The notes under the pieces were generated by a model, which was not told where the DNA came from, made no database searches, and was given only the letters and a program-made list of their open reading frames with translations. Below are positions 4,084 through 59,636 of a stretch of DNA of 64,000 nucleotides, in pieces. The stretch is from positions 1 to 64,000 of the forward strand of contig LJTT01000007.1 of assembly GCA_001303585.1 (NCBI GenBank). The letters run 5' to 3'. The stretch comes from Betaproteobacteria bacterium SG8_41 (lineage in GTDB: Bacteria > Pseudomonadota > Gammaproteobacteria > Burkholderiales > SG8-41). The first letter of the stretch is position 1. Each line of letters begins with the position of its first letter. The position numbers and the translations under genes are program-made.

Positions 4084-4162
4084 CGGTGACCGGTGACTCG
4101 TGACCAGTCACCGGTAAACCTTGGGGTCTATCCTCGGCATACTGGTCACCGGTCACTGGTCA
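4084..4162. repeat. inverted pair of heptamer arrays
   Basis: Left CGGTGAC/CGGTGAC/TCGTGAC/CAGTCAC (4084-4111), right CTGGTCA/CCGGTCA/CTGGTCA (4142-4162); fills the tRNA-SDR gap. Confidence 0.85.
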
Positions 4163-4168
4163 CGCGTT

Positions 4169-4924
4169 ATGGATCTTGAGCTCTCAGGTAAAACCGCCCT
4201 CGTCACCGGCGCATCCCGCGGCATAGGCCGCGCGGTCGCGCTCGGGCTCGCGCGCGAGGGCGTCAAGCTCGCCATTGCCGCGCGCCGCGTCAATCTCCTG
4301 CAGGAGCTCGCCCAGGAGATCGCCGGCCAGCGGGCGGCAGAGCCGCTCGTTCTCGAGGTCGACCTCTACCAGGAAGGATCGGCGGAGAAGCTCGCGCAGG
4401 TCGCAAGCGCGGGACTTGGCCGCGTCGACATCCTGGTGAACGCGGCCGGCGGCAGCCGCCCTTTCCCCTTCGAAGCGACCAAGGAGCAATGGGCGGAGGG
4501 CATGCTGGTCAACTTCATCAGGCTGCGCGAGCTCTCGCACGCACTCGTTCCGGCCATGAAGGCGCGGGGCTGGGGCCGGATCGTCAATATCACCGGCACG
4601 TCCGAGCCGCGAGGCATCAATGCCGCCAACTCCGCCAAGGCGGCCGTTCACGCGTGGGCAAAGGGCCTCTCGCGCGAAATGGCAGCGCACGGGATCACCA
4701 TCAATTCGATCCAGCCCGGGCGCATCATGAGCGAGCAGATCGTGCGCATGCACCCCACCGAAGACGATCGCCGCGATTTTGCCCGCCAGAATATTCCGGC
4801 GGAAAGGTTCGGCGAGCCGGAGGAACTTGCGAATCTGGCGGTGTTTCTCGCCTCGCCGCGCGCCGGCTATATCACCGGAACGGTCATTCCGGTGGACGGC
4901 GGTATGAGCCGCTTTGCGTTCTGA
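4169..4924 (+). CDS. SDR-family oxidoreductase (FabG-like)
   Basis: TGASRGIGRAVA cofactor motif; internal ATG at 4169 preferred because the longer ORF start reads through the repeat. Confidence 0.88.
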   Translation: MDLELSGKTALVTGASRGIGRAVALGLAREGVKLAIAARRVNLLQELAQEIAGQRAAEPLVLEVDLYQEGSAEKLAQVASAGLGRVDILVNAAGGSRPFPFEATKEQWAEGMLVNFIRLRELSHALVPAMKARGWGRIVNITGTSEPRGINAANSAKAAVHAWAKGLSREMAAHGITINSIQPGRIMSEQIVRMHPTEDDRRDFARQNIPAERFGEPEELANLAVFLASPRAGYITGTVIPVDGGMSRFAF

Positions 4925-5041
4925 CGACGCACAACCAGATCAAGAACTTTAGCCGCCGGAAAACATGGAATTCCGTTTACGCGCTCTTGATCGGGATCCG
5001 TCGGCTTTCATCGACTGCTGCAATTCGACCTTCTTTGGCTT

Positions 5042-6220
5042 CTAGGCGGCGGCAGGCTTGCTGGCCTGAGAAGGCATGAAGAGCGCGGCGCAGAACATCG
5101 CCGTCGCCATGCCGGCCAGCACAAAAAACAGATACCGGAAATCGCTGCTGTAGCGGTGCATGAGCGCGATCAGCGGCACCGACAGCGCACTGGCGCCGAA
5201 CGAGACGACGTAGCGCACCGCCAGCGCGCGTGCGCGCCAGCGCTCATCGGTGTAAGCCGCAACCATCGCGTCGTTGATCGGCACCTGGCCGAATATGAAA
5301 AACATCATCGCCAATGCGATGAGCAGCATCAGGTAATTGTCGAAAAAAGCCGCGGCCAGAAGCAGCGGCGCCTGAAGCGCGACGATCGGCACCAGTACCG
5401 ACCTGATCGTATCGCGGTCGAGCAAATGCCCGACCACCAGCTGCGCCATTGCGGCCAGAACATAGACGCCCGAAACCAGCAGGCCGATTCCCAGTGTCGT
5501 GTCGACGAGCGCCGTGAGTTTTTCGTCGAAGATCTTAGGCATTGCGACCGTCGTAGAATTGAAAATGATGCCGCCGCACAGTGTCGTAACAAGAAGAATG
5601 GAGAATACCCGCGCAAGGAGCCTGCGCGAGAAGACCTGCCTGGGGCCGCCCATTGCCGCTTTCGCCGAGATCTTGAGCTCGGGCACCGCGGCCGCAAACC
5701 CGATGCCGATTGCGATGGAGGCAATGCCGGGAACGATGAAGGCCGCACGCCAGCTCAACCAGTGCGCAAGCGCACCTGCGATCAAGGCGGCGAAAGCCAC
5801 ACCGAGATTGCCAAAGACGCCATTGACGCCCAGCACGCGCCCCACCTTGTCGCGGCCGCTGACCAGCATCGCGATGCCGACCGGATGATAGATCGCAGCG
5901 AATGTCCCGATGAGCGTGATCCCGGCCGCGACCTGCCAGGCGGCGCGGGCAAAACCGGTCAGCATCGATGAAACCCCGATCCCGACGAAGAAGACAACCA
6001 TCATGCCGCGCCGGCTCCAGCGGTCCGCCAGCCAGCCCGCCGGTATGGATCCCGCGCCGAACATGATGAAACCGCCAAGCGCAAGCGGCAGCATCTCGCT
6101 GTAAGGCCGGCCAAACTCGGGCGCCATCGCCAGCACCACCGTCGGAAAGATCAGCATGAACAGGTGGTCGAGAGTGTGCCCGACATTGAGGAACAGCTCA
6201 TTCCGGCGCGACCGCTCCAC
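5042..6220 (-). CDS. MFS transporter
   Basis: Multi-TM protein with AGWLADRWSRRG-type MFS loop; GTG at 6220 preceded by AAAGGAGAAG. Confidence 0.85.
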   Translation of the reverse strand: MERSRRNELFLNVGHTLDHLFMLIFPTVVLAMAPEFGRPYSEMLPLALGGFIMFGAGSIPAGWLADRWSRRGMMVVFFVGIGVSSMLTGFARAAWQVAAGITLIGTFAAIYHPVGIAMLVSGRDKVGRVLGVNGVFGNLGVAFAALIAGALAHWLSWRAAFIVPGIASIAIGIGFAAAVPELKISAKAAMGGPRQVFSRRLLARVFSILLVTTLCGGIIFNSTTVAMPKIFDEKLTALVDTTLGIGLLVSGVYVLAAMAQLVVGHLLDRDTIRSVLVPIVALQAPLLLAAAFFDNYLMLLIALAMMFFIFGQVPINDAMVAAYTDERWRARALAVRYVVSFGASALSVPLIALMHRYSSDFRYLFFVLAGMATAMFCAALFMPSQASKPAAA

Positions 6221-6317
6221 GTGGCTTCTCCTTTGTGGTCCCTGCCCTCGTTCAGCCACGCAGTGTAACCCCCACGTTTCGCCTTGAAAACGGCGGCGAA
6301 GGCGCCGGAGACACAGC

Positions 6318-8219
6318 TCAGGATTTGCTGCCGATGGCGGTGCGGATCTGCTCGAGCGCCGCCGGATCCTCGATGGTCGTGAGATCGCCGGGGTCACGCC
6401 CCTCGGCCAGCGCCTGTATCGAGCGCCGCAGCAGCTTCCCGGACCGCGTCTTGGGCAGGAGCGTGACAAAATGGACCCGCGCCGGGCGCGCGATCGCCCC
6501 CAGCAGCTTGTCGACCGTGTCCATGACCGCCTTCTCCTCCCGCGCGCGAGATTCGGCCGTATCGATCTTTCCCGCATCCTTGACCACCGCGAACGCGAGC
6601 GGCATCTGCCCCTTTATCTGGTCGGCCACGCCCACCACGGCGACTTCGGCGATGTTGGGATGCGCCTGCACGGCCTCCTCGATTTCCCGGGTACCGAGGC
6701 GATGGCCCGCAACGTTGATGACGTCATCGGTCCTGCCGAGGATGTAGTGGTAGTTTTCCTCGTCCCGAATGCCCCAGTCGAATGTGGAGTAGACGAGTTT
6801 GTCTCCGAAACTGGTGAAATAGGTCCTCACGAAGCGCTCGTTGTCCCCCCACACCGTGGACATGCAGCCAGGCGGCAGCGGCGGAAAAATCGCCACGACC
6901 GCCTTCTCGTTCGGGGCCGCTTCCATTGCGTCAGCCTCGCGCAGCAGGCGCAGGTCATAGCCATAGACCGGAAAGCTGGGGCTGCCAAACTTGATCGGCG
7001 TCTTCTCCACGCCCGGCACGCTCGACAGGATCGGCCAGCCCGTCTCGGTCTGCCAGTAGTGATCGATCACCGGCTTGCCCAGCATTTCGTTGAACCAGCG
7101 GTGCGTCGGCTCGTCCAGCGGCTCGCCCGCGAGAAAAAGGTGCTTCAGGCAACTCAGGTCATACTTTTTCAGGAACGCCGGATCCTGTTTCTTCAGCACG
7201 CGGGCCGCCGTCGGCGACGAGAACATCACGGTCACCTTGTTGTCCGCGACGATCTTCCACCAGATTCCGGCGTCCGGACGAATGGGCAGACCCTCGTAAA
7301 GGATCGTCGTCATGCCGTAGATGAGCGGCCCGTAGACGATGTAAGAGTGGCCGACCACCCAGCCGATATCGGAGGTCGTGAACATGGTCTCGCCCGGTGC
7401 GCCACAGTAAATGTGCTTCATCGACGCGGCCAGCGCCACCGCATAGCCCCCGACGTCGCGCTGCACGCCCTTGGGGTGACCGGTCGTGCCCGAGGTGTAG
7501 AGAATGTAGGACGGCTCGTTCGATTCCAGCCAGGTTACGGGAACCCGGTCGCTCATGTGCTGCGCGCGCAGTTCCGCATAGTCCTCATCGCGCCCTGCCG
7601 TGAGCTTCAGCTCCTTGTCGAGCCCTCGGTTGAGGATGAGGACTCTCGCCGGTGGTGACTTGGCGAGCTTGATGGCCTCGTCGTACATGGATCGATACAA
7701 AATCGCCCGACCGCCGCGCAGGCCGCCGTCCGCCGTTATCATGAGTTTGGGCTGCGCGTCATCGATTCGAGCGGCAAGGCTGTGGGCGGCGAAGCCGCCG
7801 AAGACCACCGAATGAATCGCGCCAAGGCGGGCACACGCCAGCATGGCGAAAACGGCTTCCGGGACCATGGGCATGTAGATCAGCACCCGGTCACCCTTGC
7901 CCACGCCGAGCGCCCGTATCATGCCCGCGCAGCGATTTACCTCAGCGTCCAGGTCGCGGTAGGTGTAGGTGTGCTCCTGCCCGGTTTCAGTGGAAATGTA
8001 GATGAGCGCTTTCTGCTCGCCGCGCGCGGCAAGATGGCGGTCAACCGCGTTGTGACACAGATTGGTGCGCCCTCCCACGAACCACCGGGCGAACGGGGGC
8101 CGGCTGTAGTCAAGAACCTGCCCGAACGGCTCGTGCCAGTCGATGAGTTTCGCCTGCTCTCCCCAGAATGTCTCGCGCTGCTCTATCGAGCGACGGTGGA
8201 AATCCCGATAAGCGCTCAT
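6318..8219 (-). CDS. prpE: propionyl-CoA synthetase / acyl-CoA synthetase
   Basis: [38 protein letters not shown]; PrpE-like N-terminus; start chosen at MSAYRDF. Confidence 0.88.
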   Translation of the reverse strand: MSAYRDFHRRSIEQRETFWGEQAKLIDWHEPFGQVLDYSRPPFARWFVGGRTNLCHNAVDRHLAARGEQKALIYISTETGQEHTYTYRDLDAEVNRCAGMIRALGVGKGDRVLIYMPMVPEAVFAMLACARLGAIHSVVFGGFAAHSLAARIDDAQPKLMITADGGLRGGRAILYRSMYDEAIKLAKSPPARVLILNRGLDKELKLTAGRDEDYAELRAQHMSDRVPVTWLESNEPSYILYTSGTTGHPKGVQRDVGGYAVALAASMKHIYCGAPGETMFTTSDIGWVVGHSYIVYGPLIYGMTTILYEGLPIRPDAGIWWKIVADNKVTVMFSSPTAARVLKKQDPAFLKKYDLSCLKHLFLAGEPLDEPTHRWFNEMLGKPVIDHYWQTETGWPILSSVPGVEKTPIKFGSPSFPVYGYDLRLLREADAMEAAPNEKAVVAIFPPLPPGCMSTVWGDNERFVRTYFTSFGDKLVYSTFDWGIRDEENYHYILGRTDDVINVAGHRLGTREIEEAVQAHPNIAEVAVVGVADQIKGQMPLAFAVVKDAGKIDTAESRAREEKAVMDTVDKLLGAIARPARVHFVTLLPKTRSGKLLRRSIQALAEGRDPGDLTTIEDPAALEQIRTAIGSKS

Positions 8220-8251
8220 GCCTGCCTCCTCCCAGCCACGTGAGTCCTGCG

Positions 8252-8318
8252 TAGTGAGCAGTGAGTGGATCGGATGCAGCCCAGCATTGCCTCGGCCTGC
8301 TCGCCACTCACTAATGAC
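8252..8318. repeat. heptamer-type inverted pair upstream of prpE
   Basis: TAGTGAG/CAGTGAG/TGG (8252-8268) versus CGCCACTCACTAATGAC (8302-8318). Confidence 0.6.
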
Positions 8319-8366
8319 GCCCTGCTCGTGAAAGCTTAACCCAGCGCAATCCTGGCGGACCAATAC

Positions 8367-9353: not shown

Positions 9354-9393
9354 GTTTTTCTCCTCTGGCGCGGCTAAAGGCGCGACACCACGT

Positions 9394-10533: not shown

Positions 10534-10580
10534 ACCGTGCCCGCTGCGCTCAGCTGCCCCCGCGCTGCCGCCCGTCCTGC

Positions 10581-12008
10581 TCACAGGTTGAGGGTGCGCT
10601 TGTCGACGGCGAGCGCCGCCTCCTTCATCGCCTCGGACAGAGACGGATGCGCGTGGCATATCAAAGCGATGTCTTCCGCAGTGGCGTGAAATTCCATCGC
10701 GACCACCGCTTCCGCGATCATCTCGGAGGCCATCGGACCGATGATGTGCACGCCGAGGATGCGGTCGGTCGCTGCATCGGCCAGAAATTTGACAAACCCC
10801 CGCGTGTCGCCCATCGCCCGGGCGCGGCCATTCGCCATGAACGGGAACGAGCCTGCGCGATATGCAACACCGTCGTTTTTCAGCTGCTGTTCCGTCCTGC
10901 CCACCCAGGCGATTTCCGGCGCGGTATAAACCACCCACGGCACGGTGTTGAAATCAACATGACCGTGCTGGCCGGCGATGCGCTGCGCGACCGCCACACC
11001 CTCCTCCTCGGCCTTGTGCGCCAGCATGGGCCCACGCACGACATCACCGATGGCCCAAATATCAGGCAGATTGGTGCGGCAATCGGCATCGACCTCGATG
11101 AAGCCACGCCGGTCGAGCTTCAGCCCCGCCGCCGCGGCCTCCAGGCCTTCGGTGTTTGGAACGCGCCCGATCGACACGATCAACCGGTCGCACTCGAGTT
11201 TGTGCGCGCCGTTCGGGCCGGCGTATTCGATGCTGACGCCCTTTTTACTCGCCGTGACCCGGGTGATCTTGGCGCCAAGGACGATGTCGAGCCCCTGCTC
11301 TTTTGTGAATATCTTCCAGGCGGCCTCGGCCAACGTCTCGTCCGCCGCCGGCAGGAAGGTATCCAGCATCTCGAGCAGCATCACCTCGGCTCCCAGCCGG
11401 CGCCACACGCTGCCCATCTCGAGACCGATCACACCGGCACCGATGACCCCGAGCCGTTTCGGGACCTCGGCCAGGGCAAGCGCTCCGGCGTTGTCCAGGA
11501 TCTGCGCGTTGTCGAACGGCGCCCCGGGAAGCGGGCGCGGCTTTGACCCCGTCGCCACGATGACGTGTCTCGCGGTCACGGTCTCTTCGGCAGTGCCCTT
11601 CACCCTGATCTGCCATCCCCCGGCGCTTCCGCCAGCGAAACTGCCGCGTCCGTGGAAAAACATCACCTTGTTCTTCTTGAAGAGATAGGCAATCCCCTCG
11701 TTGTTCTGGCGCACCACCTTGTTCTTGCGCTTGAGCATCTGCGCGAGGTCGAGCTCCACGCTGCCAACCCGTATTCCATGCTCGCCAAACGCATGCACCG
11801 CGTGATCGTAGTTCTCGGAGGACTGGAGCAGCGCTTTCGAGGGAATGCATCCGACGTTGGTGCAAGTGCCGCCGAGCGCCGGTTTGCCATCCGCCCTCAT
11901 CCACTCGTCGATGCAGGCGGTCTTGAGCCCGAGCTGCGCCGCGCGTATCGCGGCGATATAACCGCCGGGGCCGCCACCAATTACCACGACATCGAACATT
12001 TTGCTCAT
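10581..12008 (-). CDS. lpdA: dihydrolipoyl dehydrogenase (E3)
   Basis: [16 protein letters not shown] redox motif; C-terminal [15 protein letters not shown]. Confidence 0.95.
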
Positions 12009-12015
12009 GGCGAGA

Positions 12016-12091
12016 AGTGATCCGTGACCAGTTACGAGTGACCGGTAGGCGTTCCGTGTTTTAACCAGTTACTGGTCACGGGTCACAGGTC
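12016..12091. repeat. inverted pair of heptamer arrays
   Basis: AGTGATC/CGTGACC/AGTTACG/AGTGACC (12016-12043) and ACCAGTT/ACTGGTC/ACGGGTC/ACAGGTC (12064-12091); fills the sucB-lpdA gap. Confidence 0.88.
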
Positions 12092-12098
12092 ACGAACT

Positions 12099-13310
12099 TC
12101 AGATATCAAGCAGGATGCGCGCGGGATCCTCGAGCGCTTCCTTGATGGCGATGAGCGAGAGCACCGCCTCGCGCCCGTCGATGATGCGGTGGTCGTAGGA
12201 CAGCGCAAGGTAGTTCACCGGGCGGATCACCACCTGGCCGTTTTCCGCGACCGGGCGATCACGCGTCGCGTGCACGCCCAATATCGCGCTCTGCGGCGGA
12301 TTGATGATGGGCGTCGACAGCATCGAGCCGAAGACGCCGCCATTCGAGATCGAGAACGTCCCGCCGGTGAGATCCTCGAGGCCGAGCTTACCTTCCTGGG
12401 CCCGGGCGCCGAAATCGGCGATTGTCTTTTCGATCTCGGCAAGCGTCAACTGGTCGGCATTGCGGATGATTGGAACCACCAGCCCGCGCGGACTCGCCAC
12501 CGCCATGCCGATGTCGTAGTAGCCGTGATAGACGACGTCATTCCCGTCGATCGACGCGTTGACGACCGGATAGCGCCGCAATGCGTGGACCGCAGCCTTG
12601 ACGAAAAACGACATGAAGCCGAGCCTGACGCCATGCTCTTTCTCGAAGCGCTCCTTGTAGCGATTGCGCAGGTCGATCACCGGCTGCATGTTGACTTCGT
12701 TGAAGGTCGTGAGAATCGCCGCCGTCTGCTGTGACTGCACCAGGCGCTCGGCAATGCGCGCCCGCAGCCTCGACATCGGCACCCGCTGCTCAGGGCGCAA
12801 GCCCAGTGCGCCGAGGTCCACGCTCGGGGCCGGCGCGCGGCTCCGCGCTTCCGGCGCCTTGGCAGGGGACGCCTCGCCGGCTTCGAGGGCGTGGATCACA
12901 TCTTCCTTGGTCACACGCCCGCCGCGGCCGGTGCCCGCGATTGCGGAGGTATCGACGTGTCTTTCGGCCGCCAGCTTCTGGGCCGCCGGCATCGCCGCCG
13001 CGACCGGCTTTGCTTCCGTCCGGGCGGGAGCCTTCACTTCAGCCGCTGGGAATGCTTTCGCCTCCGGCTTGGCATCGGTATCGATCTGAGCAATGACTTC
13101 CTTGCTCACCACCGTGCCGCCGTCGCCTTTGATGATTTTCACGAGCACGCCTGCGTCGGGCGCCGGCGTCTCGAGCACGACCTTGTCGGTCTCGATATCC
13201 ACCAGATTCTCGTCCCGCTTGACGAAATCACCCGGCTTCTTGTGCCACGAGAGCAGCGTCGCCTCGGCCACTGACTCCGAAAGCTGGGGAACCTTAACCT
13301 CGATCAGCAT
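12099..13310 (-). CDS. sucB: 2-oxoglutarate dehydrogenase E2 (dihydrolipoyl succinyltransferase)
   Basis: Lipoyl domain [18 protein letters not shown]; catalytic [16 protein letters not shown]. Confidence 0.95.
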
Positions 13311-13333
13311 ATCAATTCCGTGTTACGGCAGGC

Positions 13334-16225: not shown

Positions 16226-16246
16226 CGGCGAACCCGCTCCAACTTC

Positions 16247-16267
16247 AGTGTTGAATCGTGAGTACTG
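16247..16267. repeat. short heptamer array in the gltA-sucA gap
   Basis: GTGTTGA/ATCGTGA/GTACTGA. Confidence 0.5.
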
Positions 16268-16331
16268 AATGCCGTATCAACACCGCAGAAACGGGCAATT
16301 CAAAACCGGACATCAAGCGTTCAACATTGCT

Positions 16332-17696: not shown

Positions 17697-17930
17697 TCAC
17701 GAGGCGCGCAGCAACTCCACAACGTGCTGGTAGCGCCGATCGGCCGGGGCACTTCTGCCCAATGCCCAATCGAGAAGGTCATTGTCGGGGCGCTCCAGCA
17801 GCTCCTTGAACAACGCCTGCGCCTCGGCATCGAGGCCTTCGTAATGTCGGTCCATAAAACGCGCAAGAATCAGGTCGAGCTCCAGCAATCCGCGGCGGCA
17901 ATGCCAACGCACCCGATCGGCCTCTGACAT
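17697..17930 (-). CDS. sdhE: succinate dehydrogenase assembly factor 2 (FAD assembly)
   Basis: RRGLLELDLILARFMDRHYEGL; adjacent to sdhB. Confidence 0.92.
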   Translation of the reverse strand: MSEADRVRWHCRRGLLELDLILARFMDRHYEGLDAEAQALFKELLERPDNDLLDWALGRSAPADRRYQHVVELLRAS

Positions 17931-17939
17931 GCCGGCCTT

Positions 17940-18635: not shown

Positions 18636-18717
18636 TAGCAGCTCCAATAATCCGTGGATCGCAAATCATGCATCGCCAATCGATGCCCATCCATAACCCG
18701 TCTAGCGCTCTGCCTGC

Positions 18718-18745
18718 GTTTCACGATTCACCATTCACGTCTTAC
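18718..18745. repeat. heptamer array abutting the sdhA stop codon
   Basis: GTTTCAC/GATTCAC/CATTCAC/GTCTTAC. Confidence 0.75.
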
Positions 18746-18746: not shown

Positions 18747-20513
18747 TCAATAAACTCGGGCTTTCGGCTCGAACGGTTCCACCGACAGCGGTTTTCTGTG
18801 CACTGGTTTGTACTCGAGCCGGTCGCCGTCCTTGTACCAAAGCGTATGCTTCAGCCACTTCTCGTCGTCGCGCTCCGGACAATCGGCTCGGTCATGCGAG
18901 CCGCGGCTCTCTTTGCGCGCCTCGGCCGATACGAGTGAAGCCACCGCGGTCTCGATTAGATTATCGAGTTCGAGCGCCTCGACGCGCGCCGTATTGAATG
19001 TCTTGCTCTTGTCCTTGATCTCCGTGCGGCCTGCGCGCCCGGCGACTTCCTTGAGCTTTCGCACGCCCTCGGCCAGCAGTTCCGGGAAGCGGAACACGCC
19101 ACAGTGAAGCTGCATGATGCGCCGCATCTCGGCACCAACGTCGGACACACGCTCGCCGTTCTTCTGGCCGTCGAGACGGGCTAGGCGTTGTAAGGTGAGC
19201 GCGTCTGCGTCCTTTGGCAGGGATTTGTGAAGCCGCCCATCTTCATTGAGATCGCGTATGACCTGCTCTCCCGCCGCCTTGCCGAAAACCAGCAGGTCGA
19301 GCAGGGAATTCGTTCCCAAGCGGTTGGCGCCATGAACTGACACGCATGCGCACTCGCCTACCGCGTACAGGCCCTCCACCACCGTTTCTGCGTCGCCATC
19401 TTTCGGGACAACAACCTGCCCGTTGTAGTTCGTGGGAATGCCGCCCATCTGGTAATGGCACGTGGGCACGACGGGAATCGGATCCTTTACCGGATCGACG
19501 TTGGCAAATTTCCGCGCGATCTCCCGAATGCCCGGCAGCCGTTTGTTGATGACTTCTTCGCCGAGATGGTCAAGTTTGAGAAGAATGCTGTCGGCTTCCT
19601 TGCCGGCGCCGCGCCCTTCCTTGATCTCCGTCGCCATTGCGCGCGAAACGACGTCGCGGCTGGCCAGATCCTTGGCGTTGGGGGCATAGCGCTCCATGAA
19701 CCGCTCACCATCCTTGTTCAGCAGGTAACCGCCCTCCCCGCGCACGCCTTCGGTAATCAACACGCCAGCGCCGGCGACACCGGTTGGATGGAACTGCCAG
19801 AACTCCATGTCCTCTAGCGGGATGCCCGCGCGAGCCGCCATCCCCAGACCGTCGCCCGTATTGATGAACGCGTTCGTGCTCGCGGCATAAATGCGGCCCG
19901 CGCCGCCCGTCGCGAGGACGGTTGCCTTGGCCTGGAGCATCATCACTTCACCGGTTTCCATCTCGAGGGCTGTCACGCCGAGAACCGTGCCGTCCGCGCC
20001 ACGCACCAGCTCGAGCGCCATCCACTCGATGAAGAACTGCGTGTGGGCCTTGAGATTGGCCTGATACAAGGTGTGCAGCATGGCATGACCCGTGCGATCC
20101 GCCGCGGCGCACGAGCGCGGCACCATGCGCTCGCCGTAGTTGCGAGTCTGGCCGCCAAACGGCCGTTGATAGATCTTGCCATCCGGCAACCGGTCGAAAG
20201 GCATGCCGAAATGCTCGAGCTCGTAGACGACCTCGTTCGCCTTGCGGCACATGAATTCGATTGCATCCTGGTCGCCCAGGTAGTCGGACCCCTTTACCGT
20301 GTCATACATGTGCCAGTGCCAGTTGTCCTCCTCGACATTCCCGAGCGAGGCCGCAACCCCGCCCTGCGCGGCCACCGTGTGCGAGCGCGTCGGAAACACC
20401 TTGGACAACACCGCGACCTTGAGTTCGGCTTGCGAGAGCTCGAGCGCCGTGCGCAGCCCCGAGCCACCGCCGCCAACGATCACGGCATCAAACGATCTGA
20501 CCGGCAATTGCAT
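18747..20513 (-). CDS. sdhA: succinate dehydrogenase flavoprotein subunit
   Basis: [34 protein letters not shown]. Confidence 0.96.
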
Positions 20514-22546: not shown

Positions 22547-22613
22547 ACGCTAAACGGTCACGTACAAGCGTCCGCCTATCCATCCGTTCACTGTTCACTG
22601 ATCACCGTTCACG
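22544..22613. repeat. heptamer arrays in the mdh-prpC gap
   Basis: Perfect-phase GTTCACT/GTTCACT/GATCACC/GTTCACG (22586-22613) just before the GGAGG RBS of prpC; weaker opposite arm starting at the mdh stop. Confidence 0.8.
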
Positions 22614-22622
22614 GGAGGTCGT

Positions 22623-23774
22623 ATGAGCGAAGGCCAGACTGCCATCAAGCCCAAAAAATCGGTCGCCTTGTCGGGTATAGCTGCGGGCAGTACGGCCCTA
22701 TGCACGGTCGGGCGCAGCGGAAACGACCTGCACTATCGAGGCTACGATATTCTGGACATTGCCGAGCAATGCGAGTTCGAAGAAATCGCGTACCTCCTCG
22801 TGCACGGTAAGTTGCCGACCGCCGCCGCGCTCCGCGGCTACAAGGCGAAGCTGGCGCAGCTGCGCGGCCTGCCGGCTGCCGTGTTGCGCGTTCTCGAGCA
22901 GCTGCCCGCCAGCGCCCACCCCATGGACGTCATGCGCACCGGTTGCTCGGCCCTGGGAACCGCCCTGCCGGAGAAGGATGACCACAATCTGCCGGGCGCC
23001 CGCGACATCGCAGACCGGCTCATGGCCTCCTTCGGCTCGATGCTGCTCTACTGGTACCACTACTCGCACAGCGGGCGCCGCATCGAGCTCGAAACGGATG
23101 ACGATTCGATCGGCGCTCATTTTCTACACCTGCTGCACGGCAAGCCCGCGCAGCCGCAATGGGTGCGGGCGATGCATACCTCGCTAAACCTCTACGCGGA
23201 ACATGAGTTCAACGCCTCCACGTTTGCGGCGCGCGTCGTGGCGGGCACTGGCGCCGATATGTATTCCGCGATCACAGGCGCGATCGGCGCGCTGAAGGGA
23301 CCGAAGCACGGCGGCGCGAACGAGGTCGGGTTCGAGGTCATGAACCGGTACGACACCCCCGACGAAGCAGAGAACGACATCGTGACTCGGGTGCGCAACA
23401 AGGAGGTCGTGATCGGATTCGGGCATCCGGTCTACACCATCGCCGATCCCCGCAACAAGATCATCAAGGACGTCGCGCGCCGCCTGTCCGAGGCGGCGGG
23501 TGACACCAAGATGTTCGAGGTTGCCGACCGCATCGAGGCAGTGATGATGCGGGAGAAGAAGATGTTCGCGAATCTGGACTGGTTCTCGGCCGTGTCCTAC
23601 CACCGTATGGGCGTGCCCACCGCGATGTTCACGCCAATCTTCGTCATCTCCCGGACCAGCGGCTGGTCTGCGCACGTCATCGAGCAACGCATAGACAACA
23701 AGATTATCCGCCCGACCGCGGTCTACACGGGGCCCGAGCCCCGGAAGCTCGTCCCCATCCAAAACAGAAAGTGA
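22623..23774 (+). CDS. prpC: 2-methylcitrate synthase / citrate synthase family
   Basis: 383 aa citrate synthase-family protein; [18 protein letters not shown]; followed by prpD. Confidence 0.88.
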
Positions 23775-23863
23775 CCGGTGATCAGTGACCCGTGACCGGT
23801 TGTTCGCAAGAACACGCCAAACAACCGGGTCTCTTCGTCACGGGTCACGGCGCACTAATCACG
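23771..23863. repeat. inverted pair of heptamer arrays filling the prpC-prpD gap
   Basis: GTGACCGGTGATCAGTGACCCGTGACCGGTTGTT versus AACAACCGGGT..CGTCACGGGTCACGGCGCACTAATCACG; prpC stop TGA lies inside the first unit. Confidence 0.88.
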
Positions 23864-25361: not shown

Positions 25362-25563
25362 TTAGCAGCAGATACACGCAGATAAACGCGGATCGAAAAC
25401 CTGCGTAAATCACTCAACTCTTTTTTTGATCGGCGTCTTTCGCCGTTCATCCGCGGCGGATTAACTTTGACTCAAAAGGCAGAAATCAGGCGCTGGCAGG
25501 CGAAACGGTTTTCGGTTTTTTGTGTCGACTTATCTGCGTTTATCTACGTGTATCTGCGGCTAA
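25362..25563. repeat. decamer-repeat inverted-pair element (about 200 bp)
   Basis: Left TTAGCAGCAGATACACGCAGATAAACGCGGATCG (25362-25395); right CTTATCTGCGTTTATCTACGTGTATCTGCGGCTAA (25529-25563), near reverse complement. Confidence 0.85.
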
Positions 25564-36630: not shown

Positions 36631-36831
36631 CAATAACTGAACCGAGGAGATACGGAGAGATTCAAAAAAAAGTCCTATTAGCTAGAAAGCTGTTGACAGA
36701 CCTCGATAACCGCAAACGAATTGTGAAAAAACCTCGGCAACTCAGCGGTTCAATTCAGTGTTGCTTCTCTCCGTGCCTCCGTGGCTTAGTTGTTGATTTT
36801 ATCTGCGTGTATCTGCGTTTATCTGCGGCTA
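36631..36831. repeat. octamer inverted pair followed by a decamer array, filling the leuC-leuD gap
   Basis: 36631-36663 (ACCGAGGAGATACGGAGAG) versus 36764-36795 (CTTCTCTCCGTGCCTCCGTGGCTTAGTTGTT); then ATCTGCGTGT/ATCTGCGTTT/ATCTGCGGCT at 36801-36830. Confidence 0.82.
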
Positions 36832-39319: not shown

Positions 39320-39391
39320 TCGTCTTTCTCGTTAACAGGTCACCCGTTGCCGCTCGACCAATTGAATTCCCCGAAGAGCCCTGCGTACCCT

Positions 39392-39419
39392 CCGGTCACA
39401 GGTCACTGGTCACCGGTCA
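39392..39419. repeat. perfect-phase heptamer array including a stop codon
   Basis: CCGGTCA/CAGGTCA/CTGGTCA/CCGGTCA; last TCA is the TGA stop of the minus-strand CDS ending at 39417. Confidence 0.88.
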
Positions 39420-48830: not shown

Positions 48831-49289
48831 ATGGCCGACAAGATCGTGAAGACGGATGCGGAATGGAAGAAGCAGCTCGATCCCGAACAGTTTCACGTCG
48901 CCCGGGAAAAAGGCACTGAGCCCGCTTTCAGCGGTGCTTACTGGGACCACCACGAGCGCGGCGTCTACCGCTGCGTCTGCTGCGGCGCGGAACTTTTCGG
49001 TTCGGACCAGAAATTTGATTCCGGAACCGGCTGGCCCAGCTTCTGGCAACCGCTGAAAGCGGAAAACGTCGCGACCGAGGACGACTACGGCTTCCTCATG
49101 CGCCGCACCGAGGTACTGTGCAGCCGCTGCGACGCTCATCTCGGTCATGTCTTCGAGGACGGCCCCGCCCCGACCGGGCTGCGTTACCCAGCTACCCGCG
49201 CCCATGTTCCACGATCTGTTACTCCATTGCCCATCCCCTTTCCCCGTTTACTATTTCCCATTTCCCATTCCCTCGCAGGCGCGGGATAA
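48831..49289 (+). pseudogene. msrB: peptide-methionine (R)-S-oxide reductase, 3' end lost or replaced
   Basis: CVCCGAELF..SGTGWPSFWQP..CSRCDAHLGHVFEDGPAPTGLRY then PATRAHVPRSV.. in place of the expected RYCxNS catalytic-Cys motif. Confidence 0.75.
49222..49270. repeat. seven-unit heptamer array (CCCATTT type)
   Basis: CTCCATT/GCCCATC/CCCTTTC/CCCGTTT/ACTATTT/CCCATTT/CCCATTC in unbroken 7-bp phase. Confidence 0.8.
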
Positions 49290-49298
49290 TACGCAGCC

Positions 49299-50403: not shown

Positions 50404-50426
50404 CTCTCTTACAAAAAGGAAGACTG

Positions 50427-51215: not shown

Positions 51216-51234
51216 CGGCCGTGAACCCCATTAT

Positions 51235-51383
51235 CTAGCCGCAGATACACGCGGATAAACGCCGATCTAGTCACGGCTTAAGCCCCATGGGACGCGCGGG
51301 CGACAACCCATTAACGCTCAGCGGTTTTCCGGTTTCGGTCTGCGTGTTATTACAAATATAAATCTGCGTTTATCTGCGGCTAG
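51235..51383. repeat. decamer-repeat inverted-pair element (149 bp)
   Basis: CTAGCCGCAGATACACGCGGATAAACGCCGATCTAG (51235-51270) versus AATCTGCGTTTATCTGCGGCTAG (51361-51383). Confidence 0.85.
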
Positions 51384-51393
51384 AAAGTTTTTT

Positions 51394-51627
51394 CTAGTAC
51401 GCATTCTCGACGCGGCTCACGGCCAAGACCTCCTCTCTGGGATGCAGCGGCGCGTTTGTGTCGCCCTGAAGAGCGCCATCGATCAATTGCCGCAGCTGAT
51501 GCGGCTCGCGCGAGATGCGCAGCGCTACCACCGGGTCACGCTCATAGAGCGCGTCGAGCTCCTCGTCCGAATAAAACGGCGCGTCAGTCTTGATCGTCGA
51601 TTCGCCGCCTTTCTCTCCCGCCTTCAT
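51394..51627 (-). CDS. small hypothetical protein
   Basis: MKAGEKGGESTIKTDAPFYSDEELDALYERDPVVALRISREPHQLRQLIDG; acidic, protein-like; start lies inside a repeat. Confidence 0.5.
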   Translation of the reverse strand: MKAGEKGGESTIKTDAPFYSDEELDALYERDPVVALRISREPHQLRQLIDGALQGDTNAPLHPREEVLAVSRVENAY

Positions 51628-51656
51628 CCTGCTTCCTTCTGACTTCTTACTTCGGG
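51622..51656. repeat. heptamer array (CTTCTGA type) abutting the purL stop
   Basis: CTTCATC/CTGCTTC/CTTCTGA/CTTCTTA/CTTCGGG. Confidence 0.75.
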
Positions 51657-55556: not shown

Positions 55557-55643
55557 AAGCGGTATCGCTAAAGCCCAATCTTACCCGAATCCCCGCCAGA
55601 CCGCAGCGCGGAGAGTGCGATTCACGTTAAACTACGGGGACTT

Positions 55644-57158
55644 ATGAAGCTTCACCTAAATCACGGCGAGCCGGTCTACCTGACGACGGACGTGCGCGCG
55701 ATTGAAATGGCTGCGTCCGCGGCGCCCGAGCCGCCGCCGCTCATGGCGCGAGCGGGCCTGGCCGCCGCTGAACTGGCGCGCGACCTCGCGGGCGGAAACG
55801 GCAAGCCTGTGCTGGTCGTTGCAGGGCCTGGCAACAACGGCGGCGACGCCTTTGTCGTGGCGCGCCATCTCAAGAAGTGGTGGTTCAATGTAACGGTGGT
55901 CTTTGCCGGAGACGAAGCCAGGTTGTCGAACGACGCAGCCCAGGCGCTGCGAGCCTGGCGCGCCGCGGGCGGGACGACCCAGCCGGAGCTGCCCGGCGCC
56001 GGCGACTGGGGACTCATCGTGGATGGCATTTTCGGCATTGGCCTTGAGCGCGACGTTGGCGGCCGATATGCGCAGTGGATTGCCGCCATCAATGCCATGG
56101 ACGCCCCCGTGCTGGCGCTCGATACGCCGAGCGGACTGCATTCCGACAGCGGACGAGTGATGGGCAGCGCCGTCGTTGCGGATCACACCGTCACTTTCAT
56201 TGCCCTCAAGCCAGGACTGCTCACGCTCGACGGCCAGGACCATTGTGGCGAGATCCACCGTAGCACGCTCGGTCTCGACCTCCGGTCGATGCGGCCGGCC
56301 AGCGGTTTCCTGACCGGGCGCGACGTACTCAAAACCGCACTAAAGCCGCGCCGTCACAACACGCACAAGGGCGACTACGGCAGCATCGGCGTGATTGGCG
56401 GTGATCACGCCATGGTGGGCGCAGCGCTGCTGGCGGGGCGGGCCGCGCTAAGACTCGGCGCCGGCCGCGTCTACCTTGGGCTCATCGCGCGGGACGGACC
56501 GGGCGTCGACCCCGCCCAACCCGAGCTCATGATTCGAAACGCGGACGAGTTGCTGAAGCTCGGTCACCTCGATTGTGTGGCCGTCGGGCCTGGGCTGGGC
56601 CAGTCCCCGGAGGCGGCTTTCTACCTCGGGATCGCGCTTGAATCGCCCCTCCCTCTCATCCTTGATGCCGATGCTCTGAATCTCATTGGCGCGGACCCGG
56701 CCCTCGCGAGCCAAGCGAGCGGGCGCAAGGCCGCGACGCTTCTGACGCCTCATCCGGCCGAGGCTGCGCGTCTGCTCGGCATCACCACCCGCGACGTGCA
56801 ACATGACCGGATCGCCGCCGCCCGGGCCCTCGCCACGAGCTTCAATGCCGGCGCTGTGCTCAAAGGCGCTGGCAGCGTCTGCGCGTTTCCCGACGGCACC
56901 TGGCACGTGAATACTTCCGGCAATCCCGGTATGGCCAGCGCCGGCATGGGGGATGTTCTCACGGGATTCATCGCGGCCCTGCTCGCCCAGGGCGCCGACG
57001 CGAAAACCGCATTGCTCGCGGGCACGTTCATCCACGGTGCAGCGGCCGACCATCTGGTTGCAGCTGGCAACGGGCCGGTCGGCCTCGTCGCCGGCGAGCT
57101 CATCGATGCGGCGCGCGCGCTGCTCAACCAGTCCGTAGTAATTTCGCCTGAAGGTTGA
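55644..57158 (+). CDS. nnrD: bifunctional NAD(P)H-hydrate epimerase / ADP-dependent dehydratase
   Basis: VVAGPGNNGGDAFVVARHL; THKGDYGSIGVIGGDHAMVGAALLAGRAAL; GNPGMASAGMGDVLTG. Confidence 0.93.
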   Translation: MKLHLNHGEPVYLTTDVRAIEMAASAAPEPPPLMARAGLAAAELARDLAGGNGKPVLVVAGPGNNGGDAFVVARHLKKWWFNVTVVFAGDEARLSNDAAQALRAWRAAGGTTQPELPGAGDWGLIVDGIFGIGLERDVGGRYAQWIAAINAMDAPVLALDTPSGLHSDSGRVMGSAVVADHTVTFIALKPGLLTLDGQDHCGEIHRSTLGLDLRSMRPASGFLTGRDVLKTALKPRRHNTHKGDYGSIGVIGGDHAMVGAALLAGRAALRLGAGRVYLGLIARDGPGVDPAQPELMIRNADELLKLGHLDCVAVGPGLGQSPEAAFYLGIALESPLPLILDADALNLIGADPALASQASGRKAATLLTPHPAEAARLLGITTRDVQHDRIAAARALATSFNAGAVLKGAGSVCAFPDGTWHVNTSGNPGMASAGMGDVLTGFIAALLAQGADAKTALLAGTFIHGAAADHLVAAGNGPVGLVAGELIDAARALLNQSVVISPEG

Positions 57159-57180
57159 AAACAGAGCAGTTCTTAAGTTG

Positions 57181-57251
57181 TATCTGCGTTTATCTGCGGC
57201 TAAGAATGGTTTTTGGATTTTCCGATTCACGATTCACGATTTACGTTTCAC
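57181..57251. repeat. decamer array followed by heptamer array
   Basis: TATCTGCGTTTATCTGCGGCTA (57181-57202) and GATTCAC/GATTCAC/GATTTAC/GTTTCAC (57224-57251). Confidence 0.85.
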
Positions 57252-57257
57252 GGCCGC

Positions 57258-57574
57258 TCAGCCGGCACCGTTGGTCTCGCCAAACTCCGCCTCGCTCATC
57301 GCGTAGACCACGCGAACCCGCTCGTCACGAACGAGCTGGAGCAGCTTCTCGGCCTGTTCGCGCGGGACCAGGAACTCGACCTCCAGTCTCCCGCCAGCTC
57401 GAAGAAGTGCTGCTCGTGGAGAACGCCGTGCCGGCCGAAGCCGGCGATCGCCCGGAAAGCCGAGCCGCCGTGAACGCCCATCTTCTTCGCGCTTTCCAGC
57501 AGCCACTCGTACAACAGGACGCTGCCATGCCGGTGATTCTCGTGCATGTAGAAACGCAGATAGGTTCCCTTCAT
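57258..57574 (-). pseudogene. DUF190 family protein, single-base frameshift
   Basis: MKGTYLRFYMHENHRHGSVLLYEWLLESAKKMGVHGGSAFRAIAGFGRHGVLHEQHFFELAG in frame 1; GRLEVEFLVPREQAEKLLQLVRDERVRVVYAMSEAEFGETNGAG in another frame; a 1-nt change at about 57390 would join them. Confidence 0.8.
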
Positions 57575-57577
57575 GGC

Positions 57578-57961
57578 TCACCTCACCAGTAACCGCACAG
57601 CGCCGATACCGGCCAGCGTCATCAGCAGCGAGCCGGCCAGGTGCGCAAAAATCAGGGCCGCCGCCCAGCCCCATTGCTGCCGCGCGACGAGGGCCACGGT
57701 CTCCGCGGAAAAAGTCGAAAACGTCGTCATCGCGCCAAGAAAGCCGGTTACGACCAGCAGCCGTATCTCCGGCGGCAATGATTCGAAGTGGGACAGCATC
57801 CCCATGGTGACGCCGATGAGCAGTCCGCCCGTCAGGTTCGCCGCGAGCGTTCCCAGCGGCAAAGTCGGGAAAACCGGGTTGAGAAGAATGCCCAGGCCCC
57901 AACGCACCCAGGCGCCCAGAGCAGCCCCTGCCCCGACCGCAAGAAACCCGAGCCAGGTCAC
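57578..57961 (-). CDS. crcB: fluoride efflux channel
   Basis: GAGAALGAWVRWGLGILLN; GTLAANLTGGLLIGVTMG; GFLGAMTTFSTFSAE. Confidence 0.95.
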   Translation of the reverse strand: MTWLGFLAVGAGAALGAWVRWGLGILLNPVFPTLPLGTLAANLTGGLLIGVTMGMLSHFESLPPEIRLLVVTGFLGAMTTFSTFSAETVALVARQQWGWAAALIFAHLAGSLLMTLAGIGAVRLLVR

Positions 57962-58156
57962 TTCATTTCCTCTCGATCTTTCGATTCACCGGTGTCCGAA
58001 GCAGATGAAACCAGCTTTTGGATCGCGGAGCCGCGGGAAGAAGCAAAATTGAATTAATTGGACGGCCATGAAACCAAGCGCGCCAGGATCTCTCTTCACA
58101 ATACAGTAGGACCTATCGGCGTTCATTGCCGGTTGTCAGTCGATGCTGAGATGACA

Positions 58157-58184
58157 TCCATTCACCGGTCGCTGGTCATGCGTT
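58157..58184. repeat. heptamer-type repeat just after the moaE stop (minus strand)
   Basis: CCATTCACCGGTCGCTGGTCATGCGTT. Confidence 0.55.
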
Positions 58185-58643
58185 CTAGCCCTTGAGCCGC
58201 CAGCGCTCGGCCGCCACGTCATCGGAGGCGCGCGCGTCGACCCAGCGCTCGCCTTTTGCAGTTGATTCCTTTTTCCAGAATGGCGCCCGCGTCTTGAGGT
58301 AATCCATGATGAACTCACACGCGGCAAAGGCATCGCCGCGATGCCCGCTGGTCACCACCACCAGCACGATCTGGTCGGCAGGCCTGAGCGTGCCGATGCG
58401 GTGCACCACGAGCGCGTCAATCACCTGCCAGCGCCCGCGCGCCTGCGCGATGATTTCCTCGATTGAGTGTTCGGTCATGCCGGGATAGTGCTCGAGTGTC
58501 ATTTCGGCGACCGGGTCACCGTCGTTCACGTCGCGCACCACGCCGACGAAACTTGCCACCGCGCCAATCTTGGCATTGCCGCGGCGAAGTCCAGCGATCT
58601 CCGCGCTGACATCAAAATCAGCCGTTTGTATTCTTACCGTCAT
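58185..58643 (-). CDS. moaE: molybdopterin synthase catalytic subunit
   Basis: GAVASFVGVVRDVNDGDPVAEMTLEHYPGMTEHSIEEI; HRIGTLRPADQIVLVVVTSGHRGDAFAACEFIMDYLKTRAPFWKKE. Confidence 0.95.
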   Translation of the reverse strand: MTVRIQTADFDVSAEIAGLRRGNAKIGAVASFVGVVRDVNDGDPVAEMTLEHYPGMTEHSIEEIIAQARGRWQVIDALVVHRIGTLRPADQIVLVVVTSGHRGDAFAACEFIMDYLKTRAPFWKKESTAKGERWVDARASDDVAAERWRLKG

Positions 58644-58653
58644 TACTATTCAA

Positions 58654-58759
58654 CAGCGTGAATGGTGAATGGAGTCCAGGGGAGAACCTGTTGAAGATCT
58701 GTCGCATGGCAAACGCTGGTTGTGCACTTACCAGTCACCGGTCACGGGTCACCGGGTCA
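58654..58759. repeat. heptamer arrays in the moaD-moaE gap
   Basis: GTGAATGGTGAATGGAGT on the left; ACCAGTCACCGGTCACGGGTCACCGGGTCA on the right; the terminal TCA is the moaD stop (TGA). Confidence 0.75.
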
Positions 58760-59008
58760 ACCCCCAGTGACGGGTGGGAAAAACGCGACTTCGTCGCCAT
58801 CGGCGATGGCGGAATCGCCACTCGCCATGCTCTGATTGATCGCCGCGCGGATCGCAGTCTTCTGCAGCTCGTCGGCCCACACCCCGCCGCGCGCGATCAG
58901 ATGGGCGCGCAGGTTGTCGATATTGCTGACATCCGCCGGCAACTTGATGGTCTCCGAGCCAGTGCCAAGCGCCTCTCGCAGTCTTGCGAAATAAAGCACT
59001 GTAATCAT
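58757..59008 (-). CDS. moaD: molybdopterin synthase sulfur carrier subunit
   Basis: ITVLYFARLREALG; ends AFFPPVTGG with the C-terminal GG. Confidence 0.93.
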   Translation of the reverse strand: MITVLYFARLREALGTGSETIKLPADVSNIDNLRAHLIARGGVWADELQKTAIRAAINQSMASGDSAIADGDEVAFFPPVTGG

Positions 59009-59107
59009 GGCGTTAATTATGCGCTCGACGCCGTCGCGTGCCAAGGCGAAATACGACCAACGATTCGCGCGGGCGAGCGACGCACCTGCTTTTCCTGCCT
59101 AGCGCTT

Positions 59108-59602
59108 TCAGGACAGGCCAACGTGCTTCAGCACAAAAGCCGCAATGGTCATAGGGTCGTTGAGGTTGAACTGCGGCAGCTTTGTGTCGAGCTGAATATC
59201 GGCCGCAACCGCCACCACCGCCGGGTCGTGCGGATGAATGAGCGCCTCCCCAACTTCGGCACGGTAGACCTCGAGCTTGGGGATGTGCTCGCGCTTGAAG
59301 CCCTCGATCAAGACCAGATCGCACGGCGAAAGGTGTTGCAGCTGCTCGCCCAGATGCGGCTCCGGAGCACCGCGCAGCTCGTGCATCAGCACCCACCGCC
59401 GCGATGAGGTAACCAGAACTTCGGCGCAGCCCGCTTCGCGGTGACGGTATGAGTCCTTGCCCGGCTGGTCGATGTCGAAATTGTGGTGCACGTGCTTGAT
59501 CAGAGACACCTTGAGGCCGCGCCCCGTGAAAAGAGGGATGAGCTTTTCGATCAGCGTCGTCTTCCCGCTGCCGGAATACCCTGCGAAGCCGAAAATCTTC
59601 AT
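59108..59602 (-). CDS. mobB: molybdopterin-guanine dinucleotide biosynthesis protein B
   Basis: GFAGYSGSGKTTLIEKLIP; LVLIEGFKREHIPKLEVYR. Confidence 0.94.
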   Translation of the reverse strand: MKIFGFAGYSGSGKTTLIEKLIPLFTGRGLKVSLIKHVHHNFDIDQPGKDSYRHREAGCAEVLVTSSRRWVLMHELRGAPEPHLGEQLQHLSPCDLVLIEGFKREHIPKLEVYRAEVGEALIHPHDPAVVAVAADIQLDTKLPQFNLNDPMTIAAFVLKHVGLS

Positions 59603-59608
59603 GGAAAT

Positions 59609-59636
59609 CGGTGATCAGTGACCCGTGATCGGTGAC
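59609..59636. repeat. perfect-phase heptamer array upstream of mobB
   Basis: CGGTGAT/CAGTGAC/CCGTGAT/CGGTGAC, 6 bp from the mobB start codon. Confidence 0.85.

What the first reader, a model, noticed from the sequence alone, without database searches (positions are those of the whole stretch)
4084..59636. Intergenic arrays of phase-locked degenerate heptamers at about 15 or more loci
Many gaps contain 3-7 consecutive 7-bp units that keep phase while single positions vary. Examples: CCGGTCA/CAGGTCA/CTGGTCA/CCGGTCA (39392), GTTCACT/GTTCACT/GATCACC/GTTCACG (22586), GATTCAC/GATTCAC/GATTTAC/GTTTCAC (57224), CGGTGAT/CAGTGAC/CCGTGAT/CGGTGAC (59609). Known analogues are the heptanucleotide STRR repeats of heterocystous cyanobacteria, but this gene context looks betaproteobacterial. 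Dispersal over the whole window, confinement to gaps and several sub-families suggest an actively spreading or selected repeat system. I cannot tell from here whether it is already described for this lineage.
Basis: partly seen in the sequence, partly recalled or inferred. Interest (0 to 1): 0.85.

Follow-up and report, generated by a model that had tools for sequence, protein, structure and literature searches.

The report
Heptad-armed foldback elements between genes
The short gaps between this bacterium's genes hold hundreds of 7-letter repeats that usually sit as two inward-facing arms against the neighbouring genes; such repeats are known in many bacteria, but their fixed direction, their position at gene ends and their unit-by-unit independence suggest that a protein reads them rather than that they are copying slips.

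Summary
De novo scanning finds period-7 arrays in intergenic DNA far above shuffles and almost none in coding DNA; the genome (3.75 Mb, 92% complete) holds 133 matches to a three-heptad pattern. Degenerate tandem heptamers are already known (cyanobacterial STRRs, Xanthomonas GGGAATC, Beggiatoaceae TAACTGA, paired sites in Geobacter metallireducens), so the kind is not new.

Tools added four things. (1) The dominant unit is GTGA + two lineage-specific letters + one free letter. (2) Arms face inward (GTGA>…<TCAC): 51 pairs, 0 reversed, in several families of the order and in Bacteroidales, Planctomycetes and Chloroflexi. Arms abut genes, starting at the stop codon or ending just before the next start. 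(3) In short arms, neighbouring units are no more alike at the free letter than units from other loci. Arms of one element are not co-adapted, and loops are unique. Slippage or inverted duplication is therefore not the main origin; only long arrays are homogenised. (4) Orthologous gaps in congeners are either 0-28 bp and empty, or about 50-120 bp with an array often of another heptad dialect.

Best explanation: short foldback insertion units whose ends are tandem heptad sites for a sequence-specific protein. Protein and mobility are inferred, not shown.

The parts
4084..4163 (.). Heptad foldback: left arm CGGTGAC CGGTGAC TCGTGAC, right arm GGTCACC GGTCACT GGTCAC, between tRNA-Ser (3986-4077) and the gene at 4169
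12010..12093 (.). Heptad foldback GTGATCC GTGACCA GTTACGA GTGA / GGTCACG GGTCACA GGTCAC in the gap between the genes at 10581-11999 and 12099-13310; gap 99 bp here, 114 bp with another dialect in G009, -2 to 21 bp and empty in G007, G003, G002, G008
16226..16331 (.). Gap downstream of citrate synthase: degenerate TGA-heptad foldback (TTGAATC GTGAGTA CTGAATG / CATTCAA-type right arm), related to the array at the same gap in G007; below the automatic threshold in G000
18717..18738 (+). Right-arm array CGTTTCA CGATTCA CCATTCA just before the gene end at 18747; same gap carries different heptads in G009, G007, G001 and G003
22586..22612 (+). Array GTTCACT GTTCACT GATCACC GTTCACG
23771..23862 (.). 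Heptad foldback; the stop codon (TGA) of the gene ending at 23774 lies inside the first GTGA heptad
39394..39419 (+). Array GGTCACA GGTCACT GGTCACC GGTCATG in the gap 39320-39416
49234..49272 (+). CCATTTC/CCCATTT-type degenerate heptamer array
51621..51653 (+). CTTCTGA/CTTCTTA-type degenerate heptamer array, resembling the MTYCTGA class of Geobacter metallireducens
57223..57252 (+). Array CGATTCA CGATTCA CGATTTA CGTTTCA
58730..58759 (+). Array ACCAGTC ACCGGTC ACGGGTC ACCGG; a GTGAATG doublet lies at 58658-58672
59607..59638 (+). Array CGGTGAT CAGTGAC CCGTGAT CGGTGAC in the gap 59603-59700
25368..25558 (.). Period-10 foldback of the same build: GCAGATACAC GCAGATAAAC GCGGAT / TTATCTGCGT TTATCTACGT GTATCTGCGG
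51242..51377 (.). Period-10 foldback TAGCCGCAGATACACGCGGAT ... ATCTGCGTTTATCTGCGGCTA

Best explanation
The arrays are the ends of short (about 60-200 bp) intergenic foldback elements. Each end is a run of usually 3-5 contiguous heptads; the main family is GTGA + XY + N, with GTGA conserved across the order, XY set by lineage and subfamily (CC and AT here) and the seventh letter free. The two ends always face inward (5'-GTGA...TCAC-3') around a unique spacer. The elements sit in short gaps, outer ends against the stop codon of one gene and just before the next gene. Shown: polarity, position at gene edges, unit and arm independence, unique spacers, presence or absence as a unit in orthologous gaps. 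Inferred: a trans-acting DNA-binding or DNA-processing protein reads the heptads one by one (ParB/omega of pSM19035, a ribbon-helix-helix protein, reads contiguous WATCACW heptads and needs four), and the elements arise or move by a route that does not copy the spacer. Slippage then lengthens some arrays. Which protein, and whether it mobilises, organises or regulates, is unknown. Fitted to the main GTGA family; the other heptad families share the build and polarity but would need other readers.
For: Sequence-specific: 56% of intergenic period-7 arrays have a GTGA/TCAC core in their consensus, 5% expected; GTGA is the top core of all tetramers. Rigid spacing: same-strand GTGA pairs in intergenic DNA 268 at 7 bp, 1 at 6, 14 at 8, 55 at 13. 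Polarity: 23 inward, 0 outward in G000; 49:0 over all data, plus 2:0 in G015; 13-bp family 12:0; 10-bp family 10 of 10. Not tandem duplication: adjacent units of short GTGACCN arms match at position 7 in 0.299 of cases against 0.317+-0.044 for random units. Not inverted duplication: free positions match between arms 0.585 own, 0.558+-0.030 swapped. Spacers unique. Gene-edge anchoring: 54 of 57 GTGA arms found downstream of stop codons begin within -12 to +14 bp of the codon; TCAC arms do not. Orthologous gaps: occupied about 50-124 bp, empty -9 to 28 bp. Fewer arrays in divergent gaps: 9 observed, 18 expected. Heptad reading by a protein is established for pSM19035 ParB (PMC9499535).
Against: No candidate reader or transposase was identified. 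No target-site duplication. Unique spacers do not fit ordinary copy-paste of a master element. The two RAYT-type transposases have their own flanking repeats, unlike the heptads. Several unrelated heptad families (GTTCNAG, GAAGNCA, TTGAATG) coexist, which one reader cannot explain. In G169 arms are unpaired, and about half of G000 arrays have no clear partner.
Confidence: 0.42

Rival explanations
1. Simple-sequence slippage: arrays arise and grow by slipped-strand mispairing, 7 bp being favoured by the replication polymerase, and decay by point mutation; they lie in gaps only because frameshifting repeats are purged from genes.
For: Long arrays are homogenised (adjacent identical units 0.64 in arms of six or more heptads; AGTTTCC x9). 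One-off heptamers occur (CAACATT, AGTTTCC). In the orthologous gap at 22623|23865, G007 and G004 appear to differ by one heptad. Heptamer excess and a polymerase-footprint idea are in the literature (as summarised in PMC4679880).
Against: Adjacent units in short arms are no more alike than units from other loci. The same core recurs at scores of loci. Positions 1-6 are conserved and position 7 is free. Slippage cannot set a 51:0 polarity or anchor arms at gene ends.
Confidence: 0.15
2. RNA hairpins: the elements are selected as transcribed stem-loops (3'-end barriers, terminators or operon processing sites), the heptads being a way to build a long stem.
For: Predicted RNA folds are stable (mean z -3.7 against shuffles). 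Foldbacks follow stop codons and are rare in divergent gaps. The Nostoc trnL intron P6b stem is built of degenerate heptads (PMC4476775).
Against: Arms are not co-adapted: swapping right arms between loci leaves the free energy unchanged (-41.8 against -41.4 kcal/mol, P=0.84), and free positions do not covary. A hairpin would be as stable with opposite polarity, which is never seen. About half of the arrays lack a clear partner.
Confidence: 0.18
3. Chromosome-organising or regulatory site arrays: the heptads are cis sites for a nucleoid-type or partition-type protein (RHH-like), kept by selection at many loci, with no mobility.
For: pSM19035 ParB (RHH) binds 7-10 contiguous WATCACW heptads and needs at least four (PMC9499535). 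MatP of E. coli reads GTGACRNYGTCAC, the same inward GTGAC half-sites (PMC6907758). Arms most often have 3-5 heptads.
Against: Gaps are gained and lost freely among congeners, and the dialect changes between species at the same gap. No such protein was sought by family search or identified.
Confidence: 0.2
4. Uptake-signal-like drive: the heptads are preferred DNA-uptake words that accumulate by biased transformation, with lineage dialects.
For: A constant core plus a lineage-specific part resembles DUS dialects (from memory); core and lineage letters.
Against: Isolated GTGACC outside arrays is only about 2-fold enriched (69 against 32.6+-5.0); uptake words occur mainly as singles (from memory). 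Rigid 7-bp tandem spacing is not needed for uptake.
Confidence: 0.03

Closest known systems
Paired tandem-repeat sites of Geobacter metallireducens (Aklujkar 2009, PMC2700814)
   Same: Tandem hepta- or octanucleotide units in pairs on opposite strands at variable distance, intergenic, tens of copies; class 3 unit MTYCTGA is close to the CTTCTGA/GACTTCT family here
   Different: Guessed to be IHF/HU sites; no polarity law, gene-edge anchoring, unit-independence test or orthologous-gap comparison found in the passages read; main unit here is GTGAXYN
Xanthomonas GGGAATC / Nostoc GGGGA(T/C)T heptamer repeats (Rehm 2015, PMC4692102)
   Same: Degenerate heptamers, 2-26 units, mostly four, about 180 loci per genome, many convergent pairs
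   Different: Those are G-rich and form G-quadruplexes; GTGAXYN has no G-tract. Their loci were more conserved than controls, here they turn over
Heptanucleotide STRRs of heterocystous cyanobacteria and the Nostoc trnL P6b stem (PMC4476775)
   Same: Degenerate 7-bp units; in P6b two heptad arms form a stem and whole stems are replaced by the other heptad class at one locus, as seen here at orthologous gaps
   Different: P6b is one intron stem under RNA constraint; here hundreds of intergenic arrays without arm-arm covariation
TAACTGA repeats of Beggiatoaceae (MacGregor 2015, PMC4679880)
   Same: Abundant intergenic heptamer arrays at gene borders, patchy across phyla
   Different: One near-invariant unit, mostly directly upstream of starts; here degenerate units at both gap edges with opposite orientation
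Heptad parS of pSM19035 read by ParB/omega (PMC9499535)
   Same: Contiguous 7-bp TCAC-core heptads, direct and inverted, four needed for full activity
   Different: Plasmid centromere and promoters; no such protein linked to the present arrays
REPINs / RAYT repeats
   Same: Short inverted pairs in gaps with variable spacers
   Different: RAYT genes of this genome are flanked by other repeats; arms here are tandem heptads

Membership tests
Slippage-type simple sequence repeats | Neighbouring units are copies of one another | tested here: not met
   Short GTGACCN arms: position-7 match 0.299 against 0.317+-0.044; met only for long arrays
Cyanobacterial-type STRR / heptamer repeats | Dispersed intergenic arrays of degenerate 7-bp units, lineage-specific families | tested here: met
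   other periods far rarer except 10, 13 and 14
Xanthomonas-type G-quadruplex heptamers | G-tract of three or more in every unit | tested here: not met
   Unit GTGACCN; composition by position
G. metallireducens paired tandem sites | Two runs of short tandem units on opposite strands at variable distance | tested here: met
   49% of period-7 arrays have an inverted partner (score >=8) in their own flank against 18% in flanks of other arrays; spacers 10-137 bp
REP/REPIN with RAYT | Repeats flank and match a RAYT (Y1_Tnp) gene of the genome | tested here: not met
   Two Y1_Tnp genes, whose own flanking repeats are GGGTCAGGACCCTTTT-type and GGTCAGGTCTTGAATC-type
MITE / insertion sequence | Target-site duplication | tested here: not met
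   Flank repeats 2.22 bp against 2.25+-0.17 in permuted pairs; old insertions could have lost it
MITE / insertion sequence | Copies share internal sequence | tested here: not met
   19 loops, none similar above shuffle, none elsewhere in 714 kb
MITE / insertion sequence | Empty and filled orthologous sites | tested here: met
RNA stem-loop under structural selection | Compensatory pairing between arms | tested here: not met
ParB/omega-type heptad sites | Contiguous 7-bp units with TCAC core, usually four or more | tested here: inconclusive
   TCAC core and 7-bp contiguity met; arms have 3 (41), 4 (59), 5 (24) or more heptads; first letters differ from WATCACW
ParB/omega-type heptad sites | Bound by an RHH protein | not testable with these tools
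   needs a binding assay
Templated tandem-repeat synthesis (DRT10/telomerase-like) | A reverse transcriptase in the genome | tested here: not met
   No RVT_1 match in G000 (92% complete), though G007, G009, G001, G003 and G005 have some
DNA uptake sequences | Great excess of isolated copies | tested here: not met
   GTGACC singles 69 against 32.6+-5.0

The most novel reading that the evidence does not exclude
The heptads are written, not inherited: when a gap next to a stop codon is broken, an enzyme adds lineage-specific heptads (GTGAXYN, the last letter sloppy) to both 3' ends, and the ends are then joined through a filler. This would give inward polarity on both strands, independent arms and units, unique spacers, no target duplication and genome-wide dialects. 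No reverse transcriptase of the RVT_1 family was found in this genome, so the writer would have to be another polymerase or lie in the missing 8%.
Probability: 0.05. Interest if true: 0.95.

Novelty: new variant of a known kind. Interest (0 to 1): 0.62.

Why it matters
Tandem heptamers are reported as the commonest intergenic tandem repeat in prokaryotes, with 'no clear clue' to function (PMC6344855), and the usual assumption is slippage. Here four measurable rules (7-bp phase with one free letter, inward polarity, gene-edge anchoring, independence of units and arms) argue that a sequence-specific factor is involved, at least for the GTGA family. They join scattered reports (Geobacter paired sites, Xanthomonas convergent pairs, Nostoc P6b) into one testable class. 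A pull-down with a GTGACCN array, or a comparison of near-identical strains, could settle a question left open by those reports.

Tried and rejected
RAYT/REPIN mobility: two Y1_Tnp genes found, but their cognate repeats are other sequences. Reverse-transcriptase writer (DRT10-like, PMC12632851): no RVT_1 in G000. Uptake-sequence drive: singles barely enriched. Three-frame stop cassette (7, 10 and 13 are all 1 mod 3 and GTGA carries TGA): true for GTGA arms (2.7 of 3 frames stopped on entry) but not for other heptad families (0.8 on entry against 1.4 from inside), and the G outside the stop codon is the most conserved letter (0.98), so it is at most a side effect. A universal heptad consensus across phyla (RNTYMYN) was noticed by eye, failed for several families and was dropped. 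Target-site duplication: none. Shared loops: none. Rfam: nothing but tRNA-Ser. Chance and assembly artefact: excluded by shuffles, nine congeners and named isolates such as Nonomuraea indica, Xanthomonas dyei and Nostoc.
Full report
OBSERVATION. The quoted arrays are real and at the stated coordinates. A lag-p scan of the window plus 20 further stretches of the same genome (425 kb; genes called with my own hexamer model) found 85 period-7 arrays in 61 kb of intergenic DNA against 0.7 in dinucleotide shuffles, and 8 in 363 kb of coding DNA. Periods 10 and 13 (and 14 = 2x7) are also enriched; 4-6, 9, 11 and 12 are not. With 714 kb: 139 intergenic, 17 coding arrays. Genome-wide, GGTCACNGGTCACNGGTCAC has 133 matches; of 41 genomes searched, this one included, nine hold any.

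HOST. The window is contig C69 of a 147-contig, 3.75 Mb, 92% complete genome. Its citrate synthase is closest, within a plasmid collection, to Caballeronia and Burkholderia (71%), so the betaproteobacterial guess is fair. Nine congeners at about 77% DNA identity keep synteny. Other gene names were read by eye and not searched.

ANATOMY. 56% of intergenic arrays contain GTGA/TCAC in their consensus (5% expected), and GTGA is the leading core among all tetramers. Same-strand GTGA spacing in gaps is rigid: 268 pairs at 7 bp, 1 at 6, 14 at 8, 55 at 13. Of 138 GTGA arms, 41 have three heptads, 59 four, 24 five, and 14 six or more. In the paired arms letters 1-4 are 98, 94, 87 and 94% conserved, letters 5-6 mostly CC, letter 7 near-random. 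Elsewhere in the order letters 5-6 differ: AA in G239, AC or TT in G047, GG in several others.

FOLDBACKS. An inverted partner (score 8 or more) lies in the array's own flank in 49% of cases, 18% in flanks of other arrays. Neighbouring GTGA arms within 200 bp are 23 inward, 0 outward, with F and R arms equally common. Inward-only polarity holds in G239, G047 and G015 and in Bacteroidales, Gemmataceae, Oscillochloris and betaproteobacterial loci: 49:0 plus 2:0. The 13-bp family is 12:0 and the 10-bp family 10 of 10.

GENE EDGES. GTGA arms found after a stop codon begin within -12 to +14 bp of it in 54 of 57 cases; TCAC arms end mostly 0-20 bp before the next gene. This holds for arms without a clear partner too: GTGA on the coding strand lies a median 5 bp after the stop, TCAC a median 14.5 bp before the next start. 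Of foldbacks listed with both neighbours, none is between divergent genes (one pair by the stricter gene set); arrays as a whole are half as common there as expected.

HOW THEY ARISE. If slippage made the arrays, neighbouring units would be alike at the free letter. In short GTGACCN arms they are not (0.299 against 0.317+-0.044), while arms of six or more heptads are homogenised. If one arm were an inverted copy of the other, free letters would match between arms; they do not (0.585 against 0.558+-0.030), and swapping arms between loci leaves predicted RNA stability unchanged. Spacers are unique and there are no target duplications. So the short arrays are either maintained letter by letter by something that reads six letters of seven, or generated that way.

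TURNOVER. In 17 orthologous gaps, occupied ones measure about 50-124 bp and unoccupied alleles of the same gaps usually -9 to 28 bp. The same few gaps are occupied in several species, often with another dialect but the same two-armed build (GTGACCN here, GTGATTG/GTGAGTA in G009, GTGAACG in G001, CGAGTAA in G007). One gap keeps a recognisably related array between G000 and G007, and one between G007 and G004 with what looks like a one-heptad difference.

INTERPRETATION. The simplest joint reading is a short foldback insertion unit whose ends are heptad sites for a sequence-specific protein. The precedent that contiguous TCAC-core heptads can be read by protein is pSM19035 ParB (PMC9499535); MatP reads inward GTGAC half-sites (PMC6907758). 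Neither protein is claimed to be present. The other heptad families (GTTCNAG, GAAGNCA, TTGAATG) also show a mostly consistent direction at gene edges, but numbers are small.

KNOWN OR NEW. The kind is known: Mori 2018 (PMC6344855) found heptamers the most abundant intergenic tandem repeats with no clue to function; Rehm 2015, MacGregor 2015 and Aklujkar 2009 describe family-specific cases, two of them with paired arms; Kaasalainen 2015 describes heptad stems with whole replacement. I did not find in the passages read the polarity, gene-edge and independence rules or the GTGAXYN dialect pattern; subscription papers are outside the library. Hence new variant of a known kind.

LIMITS. Home-made gene calls; sampled stretches, some chosen because they carry arrays; arms defined by the GTGA core, so tests of free letters are fair but tests of the core are not; one genome per species, so no strain-level evidence.

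Noticed in passing
window 25368-25558, 51242-51377, 36800-36827, 61521-61547; L024 15043-15204; L031 6746-6923: Period-10 foldbacks with outer ends TAGCCGCAGAT...ATCTGCGGCTA, arms CGCAGATNNA, all with the same polarity and varied spacers; a second element type with the same build.
   Followed up: partly
L038 11282-11401, L030 15503-15618, L032 18421-18519: Period-13 foldbacks GGTGATGANNANT / ATCACCATNNNTC: same GTGA core and polarity as the heptads but 13-bp pitch (12 inward, 0 outward).
   Followed up: partly
L090 4071-4415 with 3745-3766, 4539-4560, 4588-4609; L091 4492-4815 with flanks: Two RAYT-type (Y1_Tnp) genes, each flanked by its own inverted repeats (AAAAAGGGGTCAGGACCCTTTT; GGGGTCAGGTCTTGAATC).
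   Followed up: partly
L090 6051-6386: Nested elements: a 10-bp foldback encloses a CGCCGATGAA foldback and a (CGTGAAT)10 array.
   Followed up: no
orthologues of window gap 17889-17939 in G009, G007, G005 (L071, L072, L075): Insertions that enlarge the gap to about 208-263 bp, with ends CTAGGAATTTGCCGG...AATTCCTA, MITE-like, absent in G000.
   Followed up: no
orthologue of window gap 22547-22622 in G007 and G004 (L072, L047): The gap holding heptads here holds a 10-bp foldback with a nested ACAGGAT-type one in G007, and CTTGGCG-type 8-bp repeats in G004: different short-period elements use the same gap.
   Followed up: no
L116-L121 (G169): Ten GTGA arms all on one strand and unpaired, with very degenerate last three letters; differs from the foldback genomes.
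   Followed up: no
L246-L255 (G015): Period-9 intergenic arrays are as common as period-7 ones in this same-family genome.
   Followed up: no
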